Of a stretch of 40,200 nt of DNA, positions 15,179 to 25,951 are shown piece after piece. The translations under genes were made by a program, and so were the position numbers. Source of the DNA: Archangium sp. (GTDB taxonomy: Bacteria > Myxococcota > Myxococcia > Myxococcales > Myxococcaceae); NCBI GenBank assembly GCA_030695565.1, contig JAUYRZ010000043.1:1-40200 (forward strand), written 5' to 3'. The notes beneath the pieces were generated by a model. The model was not told where the DNA came from and ran no database searches. It saw only the letters and a program-made list of their open reading frames with translations. Position 1 is the first letter of the stretch. Each line of letters begins with the position of its first letter.

Positions 15179-17302
15179 TCACTTGAATAAGCGCTTGAGC
15201 CAACCGAGCACCCCGCGGGGCTGGAACACGTCGACCTCGGGGTCGGTGTCCTCTTCCATCGCGCGGATGTGCTCCTTCACGTTGGCCGGCGTGTCACGCG
15301 TGGCGAACTGAGAGACGATCCGCCTTCCGGTCGACTCCTCTTTCGCCGTGATGGTCAGCAGGCACTCGTTGCTCAGCTCGAAGCTCAGCTCGATCGCGAC
15401 CGAACCTCGCGGCCCCGGCGGGAGATCCGTCACCTTGAAGTTGCCCAGCCAGGTGTTCTCACCGGCACGCGTGGCCTCGCCCTGGAAGACCGGCAGCTCG
15501 AGCGTCTTCTGATTCTCGCGCGTGGTGACCATCTGGTATTTGCGCGTGGTCGGCAAAGAGGTGTTGCGCGCAATGATCGGGTGAAACCGCCCGCCGGGCA
15601 GGCCGATGCCGATCGACATCGGCAACACGTCGATGAGCAGCAGCCCCGCTTTCTTTTCCAACGCATCGGCGAGCAGCGCGGCACCGAGCGCGACCGCTTC
15701 TTCCGGGTTGCCCACCATCACCGGCTGGCGGCCGAAGAGCAGCTTGATGCGCTCCTGCACCAGCGGCGCGCGCGATTGGCCACCGACCAGCACGATCTCG
15801 TCGATCTGATCGGCGCGCAGGGTGCGGTTGCGAATGACCTCCTGGCAGACCTCCATGGTGCGATCGACGATCGCCCGGGTGATTCGCTCGAGCTGCTGCC
15901 GGGTCAGGGTGACGTCGAGGTCGACGGGCTTGCCGTTCACCACCGAGACGAAGGGCACGTGAATGCGCGCTTCGGTGAGGTTCGACAACGCGATCTTCGC
16001 GCGCTCGGCGGCGTCGTACACGCGCTGAATCGCCACCCGATCGGTGAAGATGGTGTCGGTCTTCTCCTCGAAGTCGCTCATCAACTGCGTGACGATCGCG
16101 GAGTCGAAGTCGATGCCGCCCAGGAACGTGTCGCCGCCCGTGGAGACCACCTCGTAGACGGCCTCGGTGTACTCGAGCACCGACGCGTCGAAGGTGCCGC
16201 CGCCCAGGTCGTAGACCAGCACCCGCTGCGGCTTGCGATGCGAATGGCCCCAGGCGAGCGCAGCCGCGGTCGGCTCGTTGACGATGCGCTCGACGTGGAA
16301 ACCCGCGAGGCGGCCAGCTTCACGCACGGCCTCACGCTGCCGCTCGGAGTACCAGGCAGGCACGGTAATCACCGCGCGGTGAACGGGCTCGTTGAGGCGG
16401 TGTTCTGCGAGTTGTTTGAGCTCGCGCAGCAGCAAGGCAGAGAGCTCCTCGAGCCGGTACGCCCGATCACCCAGCTGCACCGCGCACTCGCCGTCTTCGG
16501 TGGGCACCACCTCGTACGGGAAACGCTTGAGCAGCTCGCGCACTTCGGGCGAGTCCACCGGCCGGCCGATGAGGCGCTTGAAGCCGTAGACGACCCACTT
16601 CGGGTTGATGGTGAGCTGGCTCTTGGCGGCGGCACCGACCACGAGCTGACCACGCGGCGTGAGCGCGATCATCGACGGCACCAGCGCCTGGCCGTCTTTC
16701 CAGCTCAACAGCATCGGCTTGCCGTCGCGCACGATCGCCGCGCAGGAGTTCGTGGTGCCCAGATCGATGCCGATGATGGGCCCGGTGCGCGGGGGCTCAG
16801 GCGCAGCCTCGAAGGCGGGCGCCTTCACCTGCGTGGTGTCGCCTTGCACCAGCAACCGGCCGGCGAGCTCTGAGGGCAGGGGGGCCTGGGCCTGGGAGGC
16901 TGCTGGCGGCTCGGGCGGGATGGCGTCGGGGCTGGTGTCGATCGGCCCCACGTTCCTGGGGATCGGCGGATCCGACGAACGCGCGTGCGGCATCGCTGCA
17001 GAGGCCGACTCGAGGAACCGCCGGCTCACCGCGTCGAGGGTGATGAACTTGAAGCCCATGCCCGTGACGCCTTCGCCCTTGTTGCCGGTGACGTAGGCGA
17101 CGACCGCCGAGGCGTAGAGCACCCGCGCTCCCGTCTCGATCTTGATCTCCAGGAGCACCGAAGTGCCCGGGTTCTTCAGTGACTTGGAGCGGAGGTAGAT
17201 GCCCCCTCTCGTCAGGTTGGCCCCGTACTTCGCGAGGAAGTCTTCAGCCGTCGCGAAGGGCAGGCGCACCGAAAGGCCAATGGGCTTGTTGTCGGTGGAC
17301 AC
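15179..17302 (-). CDS. PilZ-like domain fused to Hsp70 (DnaK-type) chaperone
   Basis: A 707-residue fusion. Residues 1-108 resemble the myxobacterial PilZ-related domain: NLTRGGIYLRS at 29-39 is the NxSxxG-type loop and GVTGMGFKFI at 78-87 the closing strand. The Arg pair expected before the loop for cyclic-di-GMP binding is not obvious. A Pro/Ala-rich linker (110-174) leads to a full Hsp70: GIDLGTTNSCAAI at 178-190, NEPTAAALA at 342-350, DLGGGTFD at 365-372, then substrate-binding strands and a short end WLKRLFK. It lacks the DnaK lid-length C-terminus. The start is GTG at 17302. It may couple a second-messenger or localisation signal to chaperone activity; the client is unknown. Confidence 0.88.
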   Translation of the reverse strand: MSTDNKPIGLSVRLPFATAEDFLAKYGANLTRGGIYLRSKSLKNPGTSVLLEIKIETGARVLYASAVVAYVTGNKGEGVTGMGFKFITLDAVSRRFLESASAAMPHARSSDPPIPRNVGPIDTSPDAIPPEPPAASQAQAPLPSELAGRLLVQGDTTQVKAPAFEAAPEPPRTGPIIGIDLGTTNSCAAIVRDGKPMLLSWKDGQALVPSMIALTPRGQLVVGAAAKSQLTINPKWVVYGFKRLIGRPVDSPEVRELLKRFPYEVVPTEDGECAVQLGDRAYRLEELSALLLRELKQLAEHRLNEPVHRAVITVPAWYSERQREAVREAGRLAGFHVERIVNEPTAAALAWGHSHRKPQRVLVYDLGGGTFDASVLEYTEAVYEVVSTGGDTFLGGIDFDSAIVTQLMSDFEEKTDTIFTDRVAIQRVYDAAERAKIALSNLTEARIHVPFVSVVNGKPVDLDVTLTRQQLERITRAIVDRTMEVCQEVIRNRTLRADQIDEIVLVGGQSRAPLVQERIKLLFGRQPVMVGNPEEAVALGAALLADALEKKAGLLLIDVLPMSIGIGLPGGRFHPIIARNTSLPTTRKYQMVTTRENQKTLELPVFQGEATRAGENTWLGNFKVTDLPPGPRGSVAIELSFELSNECLLTITAKEESTGRRIVSQFATRDTPANVKEHIRAMEEDTDPEVDVFQPRGVLGWLKRLFK

Positions 17303-18916: not shown

Positions 18917-19504
18917 TCACTTGTCGCGCTTGCGCTTCGTGTCCTTCACTTCGACCGTCTTCTCGGCGTTCGACAGGCGGGTCAGCAGTGAGTCTTTGTC
19001 GTCCAGCGCCAGCTTCTCGATCGCGCTGCGCAGAGTGTCGAAGCTCAGGCGCGCCGCCTTCACCGGCTTGCCGTCACGGTACTCGTCGACCACCGGCAGG
19101 TTGATGATCTCGCGAACGAGCCCTTCGAAGTCGAGCCGCACGTCGGCCTGCGACTGAATGCAGCCGTCGCGTGCCGCGATGATCTCCTGGCTGCCTTCCT
19201 GGTAGGCCAGGTCGGGGTTTCGCGAGAGCGCGTCTTCGAACTTGGCCGTGCGGTCCTTCACCTGATCGAACAGGTCCGTGTAGATGCCGATCCGCTTTTC
19301 TTCCGGGGCGGAGTCATCACGCGCCTTCGAGAGCTCCGACGTGATGTCGTCGCACTTCATCTTCACCAGGTCGCCGGCCGTCGATGAGGTGAGCGCTTCA
19401 CTGCGCTTCGTCTCCCGGTCGAGGCGATCGTCACTCGAGATCTCTTTTACGCAGCCGGTGAAAAGCAGGGCGGTCGCCACAATGGTCAGGATGCGCTTGC
19501 TCAT
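18917..19504 (-). CDS. Putative lipoprotein of unknown function
   Basis: A 195-residue protein with a lipoprotein signal: MSKRILTIVATALLFTGC, lipobox LFTGC with Cys18 as the lipidated residue. The mature part is highly charged and predicted helical (for example EEKRIGIYTDLFDQVKDRTAKFEDALSR), with three further cysteines, and ends in a basic tail KDTKRKRDK. I recognise no family. The open frame runs far upstream antisense to guaA, but ATG 19504 with the signal peptide is the only sensible start. It is convergent with guaB and divergent from guaA, with 60 bases between the starts. Confidence 0.75.
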   Translation of the reverse strand: MSKRILTIVATALLFTGCVKEISSDDRLDRETKRSEALTSSTAGDLVKMKCDDITSELSKARDDSAPEEKRIGIYTDLFDQVKDRTAKFEDALSRNPDLAYQEGSQEIIAARDGCIQSQADVRLDFEGLVREIINLPVVDEYRDGKPVKAARLSFDTLRSAIEKLALDDKDSLLTRLSNAEKTVEVKDTKRKRDK

Positions 19505-19564
19505 TGGCGCGAGAGTGTTGAAGGGATAAGGGCGTTCGTCAACGACTGATCCCGGAGCCTCACC

Positions 19565-21118
19565 GTGCACGCCACTCACGAGAAGATCCTGATCCTCGAT
19601 TTCGGTAGCCAGTACACCCAGCTCATCGCGCGCCGGGTGCGCGAACTGGGCGTCTACTGCGAAATCCAGCGTCACAACCTGACCCCCGCTGAAATCAAAG
19701 CCTTCAACCCGCAGGGCATCATTCTCTCGGGCGGCCCCATGTCGGTCGAGCAGGCCGGCGCCCCGATGTGCGCCCCTGAGCTGTTCGAGCTCGGCCTGCC
19801 CGTACTGGGCGTCTGCTACGGCCTGCAGCTGATGGCCAAGATGCTCGGGGGCCGGGTCGACAAGAGCGCCCACCGCGAGTTCGGGCCCGCCCAGGTCGAG
19901 GTCAGCTCGGCCCGCGGCCCTTTCGCCGCCTTCAAGGCAGGCACCCAGCTCAAGGTGTGGATGAGCCACGGTGACCGCGTCGAGGCGCTGCCTCCCGGTT
20001 TCGTGGCCATCGGCACGACGCCCAGCGCGCCGTTCGCCGCCGCGGCGCACCAGACCAAGCCTCTCTACGGCGTGCAGTTTCACCCCGAGGTGGTCCACAC
20101 GCCTGAAGGCAAAGAGATGCTGCGCGCCTTTCTCTTCACCGACTGCAAGGTGAAGGGCGACTGGACGATGAAGAGCTTCATCGAGGAGTCGATCCAGGAG
20201 ATCCGCGCCAAGGTCGGTGAGACGGGCAGGGTGATCTGCGGGTTGTCGGGCGGCGTCGACAGCTCGGTCGCTGCGCTCCTGCTGCACCGGGCGATCGGTG
20301 ATCGGCTTCAGTGCATCTTCGTCGACAACGGGCTGCTCCGGCACGCCGAGCGCGAGCAGGTCGAGGCGCTGTTCACCGGCCGCTTCCACGTGCCGCTCAA
20401 GACCATCGATGCGCGGGCGCGGTTCCTCGGCAAGCTGGCCGGGGTGACGGACCCCGAGAAGAAGCGGAAGACCATCGGTTACGAGTTCATCTCGGTGTTC
20501 GAAGAGGCCGCAGGTGAGTTCACCGATGCGAAGTTCCTCGCGCAGGGCACGCTGTACCCCGACGTGATCGAGTCGGTCTCCGTGGTGGGCAAGTCGGCGA
20601 CCATCAAGAGCCACCACAACGTCGGCGGGCTGCCCGAGAAAATGAAGCTCGCGCTGATCGAGCCGCTGCGCGAGCTGTTCAAAGATGAAGTGCGCGTGCT
20701 GGGCCGTGAGCTGGGTCTGCCTGACGAGATGGTGTCGCGGCATCCGTTCCCCGGGCCGGGTCTCGCCATTCGGGTCATCACCGATCTGACCGAGGCGCGC
20801 CTCGACATCCTCCGGAAGGCCGACGTGATCGTGCTCGAGGAGATCAACGCGGCCGGGCTCTACAAGGAGACGTGGCAGGCGTTTGCCGTGCTGCTCCCGG
20901 TGCAGAGCGTGGGCGTGATGGGCGATGAGCGCACGTATGAGATGACCTGCGCGGTTCGCGTGGTGACCTCGGTCGACGGCATGACCGCTGACTGGGCCCG
21001 CTTGCCGTATGACGTGCTCGGGAAGATCTCGAGCCGCATCTGCAACGAGGTGCGCGGGATCAATCGGGTGGTGTACGACATCTCGTCGAAACCGCCCGCC
21101 ACCATCGAGTGGGAGTAG
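19565..21118 (+). CDS. guaA: GMP synthase (glutamine-hydrolysing)
   Basis: Aminates XMP to GMP using glutamine and ATP. The N-terminal class I amidotransferase domain has the triad Cys84 (GVCYGLQL), His173 and Glu175 (QFHPEV). The ATP pyrophosphatase domain follows with the PP-loop SGGVDSS at 228-234. The C-terminal dimerisation/XMP-binding domain includes [13 protein letters not shown] and ends [17 protein letters not shown], the conserved finish. The 517-residue length is typical. The start is GTG at 19565, 60 bases from the divergent lipoprotein gene. Confidence 0.98.
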
Positions 21119-21131
21119 TCTTTTCGCTTCC

Positions 21132-21467
21132 ATGGCTGCAGCCCAGAAGTCAGCGAAGAAGAAGAAGGCTCCCGCGACGAAGGCGGCTCTCAAGAAGAAG
21201 GCTTCTCGCGCTGCCGCGCTCGCCTGGTTTGCGAACCTGTCGAGCCGGATCTTCGAGGCCGGGGTGCCTGAGCTTCAGGTGCTGATCTCTGAGGCTCGGA
21301 CGTATGACCTCGTCGGGTTGAGCGAGGCGCTGGGCGAGGATTCCCAGGTGCTCGCGCTCAACAAGGCGGCCAATGAGCTGATTGAGGCAGGGTTGGATTC
21401 GTTTGGGGCAGCGAGCCCTCAGGGATTCCAGCTCCAGGTGCTTCGGGACATCTTGAACGACTCGTGA
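21132..21467 (+). CDS. Small protein with Lys-rich N-terminus, unknown function
   Basis: The 111-residue product begins 13 bases after the guaA stop and is probably read from the same mRNA. Residues 6-27 are a Lys/Ala-rich basic tail (KSAKKKKAPATKAALKKKAS) that could bind nucleic acid or be a flexible extension. The remainder is a compact helical domain without recognised motifs (LAWFANLSSRIFEAGVPELQVLISEA; FGAASPQGFQLQVLRDILNDS). ATG 21132 is chosen because the longer frame overlaps guaA. No family is recognised. Confidence 0.65.
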   Translation: MAAAQKSAKKKKAPATKAALKKKASRAAALAWFANLSSRIFEAGVPELQVLISEARTYDLVGLSEALGEDSQVLALNKAANELIEAGLDSFGAASPQGFQLQVLRDILNDS

Positions 21468-23778: not shown

Positions 23779-25692
23779 TCAGCCAGGGACTGACTTCCCC
23801 CAGATCTCGTCGAAGCGGTTCTGGAACATCGAGGCCGTCTCCTGGTGGTTCTTCACGGTGATGCGGTTCTCGGAGTGTTTGGTCGACGACGACTCGGAGA
23901 AGTTGGCGCTCCCGAAGAAGACGTCGTTGCCGACCACGCCGAACTTCTCGTGCATCGTCTTGGCCTTCTGAATGCGCACCTCGACCGGGTAGCCCTGGGC
24001 GGCGAGGGCCTTGAGCGCAGCAGCCGCCGGAGCTGTGTAATTATTCTCGAGGACCACCCGAACCACGGCGCCTCGTCTGGCCGCGGCCAGGAGCGACACG
24101 AACTCGGGCGCCGTCGGGCTCGCCCCGTACATCGCCACCGAGATGGGATCGCCCGCCTTTGCCCGGTTGAACAAGTCGGTGGCTGCGACGGTGACCGACG
24201 CGCGCGTGGGCGAGACGACGCCATCGGCCCCAGCGACGAGCGCCTGCCGGATGCCATCGGGGCCGTAGCCGGTTCCACCCGCGGGTGAACCTGCGGGGCG
24301 GCTGTTGAAGAACGCCTCCACGTCGACCGCGGTGAGGGAGTGGCGCAGCCGGGTGATGGTGGCCTTCGGCACGCCCACTTTGATCAGCTCGTCGATCGAC
24401 TCGAAGTCGCCGTTCTTCTCACGGAAGGCCACCAGCGCCGTCGCCTGCGTCTTGGTGAGGCCGACCTTGTCGAGCTCCTCCAGCGAGGCGGTGTTGATCG
24501 ACACCTGGCCCGAGCCGAAGCCGATGTCTTGCAGTTGGGTGTCGGTCAGTGACGCGAGCTGCGGCACGCGCTCCTTCAGATCGGCGGCGTCGGTGAAGCG
24601 GCCGTACTTCGTGCGCTCCTGGATCACGCTGCGCGCCAGAGTCTTCGAGCCGAGCAGGGTGGCCAGGCGGGTCTCGTCCTGCACGCGGAAGCCGTTCACG
24701 TCGAGGCTGCGGGTATCGGAAGGCACCGTGTACGCGACGAACGCATCGTCAGGCCGGTTGGTCACCGAGGTGGCGGGCTTGTTGTGCGCGCGCATCATCT
24801 CGTTCCACTTCGTGCCCTTGTAGTTCTGGAAGGCGTTGGGCGAGAGCGCCGCCTCGGGGTTGTTCCAGTAGCCGGCGAACTCGCCACCGAACTGCTCTAC
24901 AGCGCGGCGGGAGGACGAGTCTTTGTTCTGGAAGATGGTGAGATCTTCGTAGTTCTTGGTGTCGGCGGTGGCCGACCAGTTGAACGAGCCGGTGAGCAGT
25001 GAGTCAGGCTTACCGTCGATGAAGGTGACGAAGCCCTTGTGGTGATTGAGGCCCTGCGTCGCGCCGTGGTTGTAGGCGGGGCGCTCGAGCGTGCTGCTCC
25101 AGACGTAGGGGAAGTCTTTCTTGAACTTCACCTGGATGTTCGGGAGCCCGAGCTTCGCGAGCTCAGGCAGCGCGTTGCCGCCGCTCGCGGTGGCCTGGCC
25201 GGAGTCGGCGATCACCCGGAAGGTGACGTTCGGGTTCTGCCGGGCGATGTCGGTGATCGCCTGCTGCATCACGTCGCTCTGGAACTCGAAGATGAGCATG
25301 TTGACGTCCATCGGGCGGCCGTTGGCGCGGACGACGGAGTCCTGCAGCTCCTTCACCATGCGCGCTTCGACCGACTTGCCCTGGAGCGTGAAGACGTTGC
25401 TCACGCCGTCGAGGTTGCCCAGATCAGACATCGACGTGATCGCGACGTGCGCGCCTTCGATGCCCACGCCCAGCAGATCGGGCGTCAACGCGCCGGTCGC
25501 CGCAGCGATGAAGGCGTCGGCCACGGCCTGCACTTCGTTGGCGGAGAGCACCTTGTTGAGGTCGGCCCCTGCGGCGTTCACCAGCGCGCCTTCGATGCGC
25601 TTGCGATCGACGTCGTTGGTGGCGCGGGCCAGCACGCGATCGACGATGGGGCGGGCGGCGCTGGAGATCTTGAGCTGGGCGAACGTGGGCAT
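23779..25692 (-). CDS. Phospholipase D-like protein with internal helix-hairpin-helix repeats
   Basis: A 637-residue protein with two PLD half-sites: HHKGFVTFIDGK at 217-228 with GSFNWS at 235-240, and HEKFGVV at 581-587 with GSANFS at 594-599. Together they should form one phosphodiesterase active site of the HKD superfamily. Between them lie two ComEA-type helix-hairpin-helix modules, about 340-392 (IQERTKYGRFTDAADLKERV) and 397-450 (VSINTASLEELDKVGLTKTQ...FREKNGDFESIDELIKVG), which usually bind DNA. The N-terminal 70 residues are helical. No signal peptide is evident from ATG 25692, so it may act on nucleic acid in the cytoplasm or leave by another route. A nuclease is more likely than a lipase given the HhH modules, but this is inference. 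Confidence 0.82.
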   Translation of the reverse strand: MPTFAQLKISSAARPIVDRVLARATNDVDRKRIEGALVNAAGADLNKVLSANEVQAVADAFIAAATGALTPDLLGVGIEGAHVAITSMSDLGNLDGVSNVFTLQGKSVEARMVKELQDSVVRANGRPMDVNMLIFEFQSDVMQQAITDIARQNPNVTFRVIADSGQATASGGNALPELAKLGLPNIQVKFKKDFPYVWSSTLERPAYNHGATQGLNHHKGFVTFIDGKPDSLLTGSFNWSATADTKNYEDLTIFQNKDSSSRRAVEQFGGEFAGYWNNPEAALSPNAFQNYKGTKWNEMMRAHNKPATSVTNRPDDAFVAYTVPSDTRSLDVNGFRVQDETRLATLLGSKTLARSVIQERTKYGRFTDAADLKERVPQLASLTDTQLQDIGFGSGQVSINTASLEELDKVGLTKTQATALVAFREKNGDFESIDELIKVGVPKATITRLRHSLTAVDVEAFFNSRPAGSPAGGTGYGPDGIRQALVAGADGVVSPTRASVTVAATDLFNRAKAGDPISVAMYGASPTAPEFVSLLAAARRGAVVRVVLENNYTAPAAAALKALAAQGYPVEVRIQKAKTMHEKFGVVGNDVFFGSANFSESSSTKHSENRITVKNHQETASMFQNRFDEIWGKSVPG

Positions 25693-25951
25693 GGGCGGCG
25701 CAGATCGGACCCATTCGCAGGCCCATTTGCAAGGGGCTTGGACAGCGCCAGCAACACCACCAACCACACGCAGGGCCAGCTCATGGCGTACCTCGAGTCG
25801 ACGAGACCTCGAAGGCGTCGCGCGACGAATCGTGTGACGGTGGGCTCATCTCATTTCCAGGCAGAACCTCGGACCTCTGCGGAGGTTCGTTGCAGTCGAT
25901 GTGCCGAGAAGTTCCTACGCGTCGATCAGCCCGGCGCTTCTGCTGGGGGCG
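25693..25951. other. Intergenic gap with small hairpin
   Basis: About 260 bases upstream of the PLD gene and downstream of the binding-protein gene. It contains AACCTC (25865-25870) pairing with GAGGTT (25882-25887), with an alternative tight stem CCTCTGCGGAGG inside. No U-run follows on either strand. The PLD promoter should be here. No gene is supported. Confidence 0.35.

What the first reader, a model, noticed from the sequence alone, without database searches (positions are those of the whole stretch)
23779..25692. PLD-superfamily enzyme with two helix-hairpin-helix modules between its half-sites
Two HKD-type half-sites (217-240 and 581-599) are separated by about 340 residues carrying tandem ComEA-like HhH modules. 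HhH modules normally bind DNA, so this may be a DNA-processing nuclease or a DNA-uptake-related enzyme. No signal peptide is visible despite neighbours being exported.
Basis: partly seen in the sequence, partly recalled or inferred. Interest (0 to 1): 0.55.

Follow-up and report, generated by a model that had tools for sequence, protein, structure and literature searches.

The report
Two-part nuclease-like enzyme, DNA-grip linker
A conserved myxobacterial enzyme, probably one that cuts nucleic acid, has its active site built from two halves of one chain lying on either side of a pair of worn-down DNA-grip-like modules; it is an unusual arrangement of known parts rather than a new kind of system.

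Summary
Window 23779-25692 (minus, 637 aa) encodes two PLD domains whose half-sites (217-240, 581-599) flank two tandem ComEA-like HhH modules; the second is clear, the first degenerate but related to it. In 22 aligned full-length homologs, all from Myxococcota genomes, both HxK...GSxN...E half-sites are kept 22 of 22. AlphaFold models superpose both halves as one body on two-domain PLD enzymes (PLD3/PLD4 nucleases, poxvirus F13, phospholipase D), so the half-sites probably form one active site; the catalytic loops have low confidence.

"HhH, so DNA-binding" is weaker than claimed: the GhG hairpin is absent in 22 of 22 (first hairpin of module 2) and 19 of 22 (second), and the key ComEA DNA-contact lysine is absent in 22 of 22. 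No shared operon partner and no signal peptide were found. An EF-hand-like loop in the N-terminal domain and cysteine-free chains (15 of 22) hint at action outside the cytosol by an unknown route. Two distant relatives order the parts differently, so the layout looks like a domain permutation. 

Best reading: a single-chain, two-half-site nuclease. New variant of a known kind.

The parts
23779..25692 (-). whole gene, 637 aa plus stop
   Evidence: start supported by homolog alignment
25411..25692 (-). N-terminal domain, residues 1-94, no Pfam match
   Evidence: helical in model
25534..25569 (-). degenerate EF-hand-like loop, residues 42-53 (first ligand position not Asp)
   Evidence: seen by eye; D/N44 22 of 22, N/D46 22 of 22, E53 21 of 22; no Pfam EF-hand match
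24784..25410 (-). first PLD domain, residues 95-303
   Evidence: PLDc_2 second stretch, NucT local match 212-259; model; profile match to second PLD domain, probability 89%
24973..25044 (-). half-site 1, residues 217-240 (H217, K219, N238)
   Evidence: 22 of 22; coordinates
24946..24948 (-). E249, conserved glutamate following half-site 1
   Evidence: 22 of 22
24514..24711 (-). HhH module 1, residues 328-393, degenerate
24328..24513 (-). HhH module 2, residues 394-455
   Evidence: HHH_3 51.3 bits; TIGR00426 57.7 bits over its 53.1 cut-off
23782..24327 (-). second PLD domain, residues 456-637
   Evidence: PLDc_2 511-631; Nuc 1byr E 4.5e-10
23896..23952 (-). half-site 2, residues 581-599 (H581, K583, N597)
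   Evidence: 22 of 22; coordinates
23869..23871 (-). E608, conserved glutamate following half-site 2
   Evidence: 22 of 22

Best explanation
It is a single-chain, two-half-site PLD-superfamily phosphodiesterase, most likely a nuclease. The first PLD domain (95-303) and the second (456-637) pack into the usual pseudo-dimer and bring H217/K219/N238 and H581/K583/N597 into one active site; one histidine would attack the phosphodiester and form a phosphohistidine intermediate, the other would act as general acid. Two ComEA-type HhH modules loop out between the halves and probably hold a nucleic-acid substrate beside the site, though their hairpins are worn. Shown here: the domains, invariance of both half-sites, and a model in which both halves superpose as one body on known two-domain enzymes. 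Inferred: activity, nucleic acid as substrate, HhH contact with it, and action outside the cytosol.
For: Two intact half-sites, 22 of 22. Sequence matches of the second PLD domain to nucleases: Nuc 4.5e-10, PLD6/MitoPLD 5e-4; local matches to NucT, DrmC and DpdK and PbeA. Structure: m2b0f aligns over 94-637 to PLD3/PLD4 with Z about 15.5-16.3, about 287-304 residues, rmsd 3.8-4.2; m556 (residues 108-637) gives Z 18.0-19.2, 282-297 residues, rmsd 3.4-3.8. Displaced Asp is tolerable: in PLD3 the Asp/Glu of the motif lies 20 A from the active site (PMC10783504, passages seen). Nuclease domains fused to ComEA-like (HhH)2 have a precedent (PMC4777378, section 25).
Against: The best structural rows include lipid enzymes: F13 ranks first (Z 18.5 and 21.2), then bacterial phospholipase D and phosphatidylserine synthase. 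GhG is absent in 22 of 22 at 411-413 and complete in only 3 of 22 at 440-442; the ComEA K164/K166 position is never Lys. Alignments for folding held only 7 sequences.
Confidence: 0.6

Rival explanations
1. A phospholipase D or phosphatidyl/phosphodiester transferase acting on lipids or another phosphodiester, with the HhH modules serving as protein-protein or structural spacers.
For: Vaccinia F13, bacterial phospholipase D and phosphatidylserine synthase are among the best structural matches; HhH hairpins have lost GhG; T2SSK, a non-DNA-binding relative of the HhH fold by recall, is a weak Pfam match at 411-436.
Against: No membrane anchor or signal peptide seen; sequence matches in the PDB set are mostly nucleases or PLD6.
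Confidence: 0.2
2. A secreted or contact-delivered antibacterial nuclease: the N-terminal EF-hand-like domain directs release by a signal-less route, and the enzyme cuts prey or environmental DNA.
For: Cysteine-free chain in 15 of 22 homologs, against 1 of 32 neighbouring ORFs of 500-900 aa (ORFs called by a simple script, and the homologs are related, so not independent). EF-hand-like loop. Distant relatives L040 and L042 look like lipoproteins by eye. A divergent paralog L043/L069 is fused to a further ~1100 residues.
Against: The N-terminal domain was not found on any other protein at convincing score: beyond the family itself, the best of 25 genomes is E 0.016. No immunity-gene-like or secretion partner recurs beside it.
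Confidence: 0.3
3. A DNA-uptake enzyme.
For: HhH module 2 passes TIGR00426, the ComEA HhH repeat model (57.7 bits, cut-off 53.1).
Against: No signal peptide, ComEA contact lysine absent, no competence gene among nine window neighbours scanned, other HHH_3 proteins in the genome, gene missing from most genomes of the family examined (11 of 40 relatives have it).
Confidence: 0.05
4. A stand-alone anti-phage nuclease related to DrmC, DpdK or PbeA.
For: Weak local matches: PbeA 4e-10, DrmC 1.9e-7, DpdK 1.3e-6.
Against: Matches cover one PLD domain only, and DrmC (27.1 bits) and DpdK (24.2) are far below the NCBIfam cut-offs of 133 and 100. The gene sits in a stable chromosomal place near guaA in 6 of 6 loci examined in two genera, unlike a mobile defence island.
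Confidence: 0.07

Closest known systems
PLD3 and PLD4, lysosomal 5' exonucleases
   Same: Single chain, two PLD halves, one active site; both halves superpose as one body
   Different: No HhH modules between the halves (their second domain follows the first directly by the passages); membrane-anchored, eukaryotic; sequence identity only 16-19% in the structural alignment
Nuc / NucT, single-half-site bacterial nucleases
   Same: Closest solved sequence relative of the second PLD domain (1byr, E 4.5e-10); NucT matches the first
   Different: One half-site per chain, working as a homodimer (recalled for Nuc; for PLD6-type nucleases stated in the passages of PMC10783504); here both halves are in one chain
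ComEA, periplasmic DNA receptor
   Same: HhH module 2 passes the ComEA HhH model; module 1 is its degenerate copy
   Different: No export signal, GhG lost, key lysine absent; embedded in an enzyme
Nucleases with ComEA-like (HhH)2 domains such as DNaseTA of Thioalkalivibrio
   Same: Nuclease plus ComEA-derived HhH module; PLDc is listed among domains fused to such modules (PMC4777378, section 25)
   Different: There the catalytic domain is EEP-type and HhH is C-terminal; here the modules lie between two half-sites

Membership tests
PLD superfamily (two half-sites in one chain) | PLD-like domains | tested here: met
   PLDc_2 87.1 bits, two stretches
PLD superfamily (two half-sites in one chain) | Two HxK...GSxN half-sites | tested here: met
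   22 of 22 for all six H, K, N positions and GS
PLD superfamily (two half-sites in one chain) | Asp at strict HxK(x)4D spacing (not universal: PLD3 has Glu in its second motif) | tested here: not met
   Asp displaced by two positions in both half-sites; described as structural, not catalytic, in PLD3
PLD superfamily (two half-sites in one chain) | Both domains packed as one pseudo-dimer | tested here: met
   in models only: one superposition spans 94-637 and the whole of 108-637
PLD3/PLD4 exonucleases | 5' exonuclease activity on single strands | not testable with these tools
   needs an assay
ComEA | Export signal or membrane anchor | tested here: not met
   crude hydropathy, 24 rows: maximum 0.28-1.31, except L034 2.09 with an uncertain start
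ComEA | GhG hairpins and conserved K164-equivalent | tested here: not met
   GhG 0 of 22 at hairpin 1, 3 of 22 at hairpin 2; Lys 0 of 22 at 416 (position matched by me from the alignment)
DISARM DrmC / Dpd DpdK | Score over the family cut-off | tested here: not met
   27.1 of 133 and 24.2 of 100 bits
EF-hand | Pfam EF-hand match | tested here: not met
   no EF-hand family at E up to 10 for four N-terminal domains

The most novel reading that the evidence does not exclude
A family of substrate-gated nucleases: the HhH modules between the halves bind nucleic acid and so bring the two half-sites into register, so that the enzyme is active only on bound substrate; the family arose by permuting an ancestral HhH-HhH-PLD-PLD exported enzyme, and its signal-less, cysteine-free, EF-hand-like-headed form leaves the cell by an undescribed route.
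Probability: 0.12. Interest if true: 0.7.

Novelty: new variant of a known kind. Interest (0 to 1): 0.36.

Why it matters
PLD enzymes with both half-sites in one chain and DNA-binding HhH modules are each well known, but a pair of HhH modules placed between the half-sites raises a testable question: does binding there hold or gate the active site? If the protein leaves the cell, it would also mark an export route without a signal peptide in predatory bacteria.

Tried and rejected
Phage, plasmid and viral relatives of the window protein: none by tblastn in 50,697 phage and 72,556 plasmid records, none confirmed in viral contigs. A distant member (L033) used as query hits 1565 plasmid records, but only over about 20% of its length in the 20 rows listed, one PLD domain annotated phospholipase D family, and no record covers 80%. 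BFVD fold search: best matches are two-domain PLD proteins of poxviruses and giant viruses; only 8 of 529 matches have E up to 0.001.

Export by N-terminal module: searched 25 genomes with the N-domain profile. Besides nine strong family members, weak rows (E 0.016-0.097) remain, of which I looked at L052, L053 and L054. L052 is a transglutaminase-like ORF with a real EF-hand-like stretch; L054 looked like chance.

Charge as a test of DNA binding: module 2 has net charge 0 in the window protein, family mean -1.6. I dropped this, because by my own hand count ComEA's HhH stretch as printed is also about -1, so charge does not discriminate.

Neighbour-gene association: the largest gene cluster besides the PLD family spans 6 of 19 loci (guaA, IMPDH), which is shared synteny within two genera and not an operon (part of that output was cut, L061-L064 were reprinted, the end of L060 and the start of L065 were not seen). 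Signal: L065 neighbours were scanned and show a sigma factor, a protein kinase and unknown proteins, no secretion system.

Literature: six searches; no title or abstract listed described this arrangement. Seen of papers: PMC4777378, one passage and section 25; PMC10783504, PMC9747964 and PMC12839542, passages only; all others only as listings. A pattern check on four HhH loci of the same genome printed nothing and was not pursued.

Full report
WHAT IS THERE. The gene runs from 25692 down to 23779 on the minus strand and codes for 637 residues; a longer reading from a GTG at 25767 adds 25 residues that homologs do not share. Pfam finds PLDc_2 twice (87.1 bits, cut-off 27) and HHH_3 twice (61.8 bits). 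Scanned alone, module 2 (394-455) scores 51.3 bits for HHH_3, while module 1 (about 328-393) scores 21.6, below the cut-off of 27. A profile-profile comparison joins the two modules (88.4%), against 0.1, 0.8 and 0.2% for three control pairs, and joins the two PLD domains (89.4%).

CONSERVATION. The same genome has one copy. Of 40 relatives searched, counting the window's own genome, 11 have a match at 1e-10; of 195 Myxococcota genomes, 29 have a match at 1e-15 to a profile of ten members. Three of those 29 (G049, G163, G175) match only in part and belong to differently built proteins, and some others are cut by contig ends. From these I aligned 22 full-length members; two truncated rows and one divergent paralog (L043) were left out of the counts. 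H217, K219, G235, S236, N238, E249, H581, K583, G594, S595, N597 and E608 are each kept in 22 of 22. The Asp of the strict motif is displaced in both half-sites. In PLD3 that residue lies 20 A from the site and is Glu in the second motif (PMC10783504, passages), so this is no sign of inactivity.

DO THE HALVES MEET? Two AlphaFold models were made, each from 7 sequences. The full chain gave pLDDT 70.1 and pTM 0.64; residues 108-637 gave 75.9 and 0.77. The half-sites therefore assemble in the model. The catalytic loops themselves have pLDDT under 50, and I could not read coordinates, so the distance between the histidines and the facing of the HhH modules were not measured.

NUCLEASE OR LIPASE? 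Fold does not decide: F13 and phospholipases fit as well as nucleases. Sequence leans to nucleases: Nuc at 4.5e-10, PLD6 and PLD4 weaker, NucT, DrmC, DpdK and PbeA locally. Fusions of PLDc and other nuclease domains to ComEA-like (HhH)2 are known (PMC4777378, section 25). I put a nuclease at about 0.6.

DO THE HhH MODULES BIND DNA? At 411-413 the hairpin reads G-h-S/T/P in 22 of 22; at 440-442 a complete GhG survives in 3 of 22 (L032, L033, L036), all in the deeper branch. The lysine most important for DNA binding in ComEA (K164 in B. subtilis; PMC9747964, passages) corresponds, by my own numbering on the alignment, to residue 416, which is Lys in 0 of 22. A nearby Lys/Arg at 414 (16 of 22) could partly stand in. 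Binding is possible but unproved.

WHERE DOES IT ACT? No signal peptide is visible by hydropathy in 24 rows, with one uncertain start (L034). Three hints point outward: a degenerate EF-hand-like loop at 42-53 (E53 21 of 22; no Pfam EF-hand match); no cysteine in 15 of 22 homologs against 1 of 32 neighbouring ORFs of similar size (related homologs, simple ORF calling); and distant relatives that look like lipoproteins by eye. None is proof, and the N-domain was not found elsewhere at a convincing score.

HOW DID THE LAYOUT ARISE? In L040 one ORF reads HhH-HhH-PLD (HHH_3 88.6 bits, PLDc_2 67.2 bits) and an overlapping ORF in another frame just downstream carries a second PLD domain (59 bits) that resembles the window's first one; a frameshift in a draft genome cannot be excluded. 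In L042 one ORF holds two PLD domains behind an HhH-like stretch seen by eye but not by Pfam. The parts are thus found as HhH-PLD-PLD as well as PLD-HhH-HhH-PLD, which suggests permutation; the direction is not known.

GENE SETTING. In the window and two other genomes of the genus, and in three of another genus, the gene lies within about 7 kb of guaA in the same relative orientation (6 of 6 loci examined, of ten carriers in these two genera). In a genome of the same genus without the gene (G005), guaA, the next ORF and the S46 peptidase are in place and no copy lies in the 16 kb read. The tree groups the four window-genus members and the five members of the other genus each at 100/100, as sisters at 92/91 together with nothing else. 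One member of the window's family (L016) groups with members of other families, so some transfer is possible. No gene recurs beside it across distant carriers.

VERDICT. A conserved, probably active, single-chain two-half-site PLD enzyme, most likely a nuclease, with worn ComEA-like modules between the halves. New variant of a known kind; moderate interest.

Noticed in passing
L069:6199-11409 (minus), also L043: A divergent paralog with both PLD domains (HhH region not matched by Pfam) is fused to a further ~1100 residues; the far end has weak NAD-binding-fold matches, some just over cut-off. The same genome also has the ordinary form (L038).
   Followed up: partly
window 15179-17302: Hsp70 domain (504 bits) with an N-terminal PilZ-like stretch just under cut-off (19.9 of 22.2 bits); a matching gene lies near guaA/IMPDH in five of the 19 loci clustered.
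   Followed up: no
L052 (genome G005), 412-residue open frame: A transglutaminase-like protein with an N-terminal EF-hand-like stretch and no obvious signal peptide by eye; a possible parallel to the N-terminal domain studied here, but the profile match is weak (E 0.065).
   Followed up: partly
L040 964-2259 and 2069-2971: HhH-HhH-PLD lipoprotein-like ORF overlapping a second PLD ORF in another frame: split gene, frameshift or sequencing error.
   Followed up: partly
window 18917-21193 (minus): A 758-residue open frame on the strand opposite guaA with no Pfam match; most likely a by-product of high G+C.
   Followed up: no
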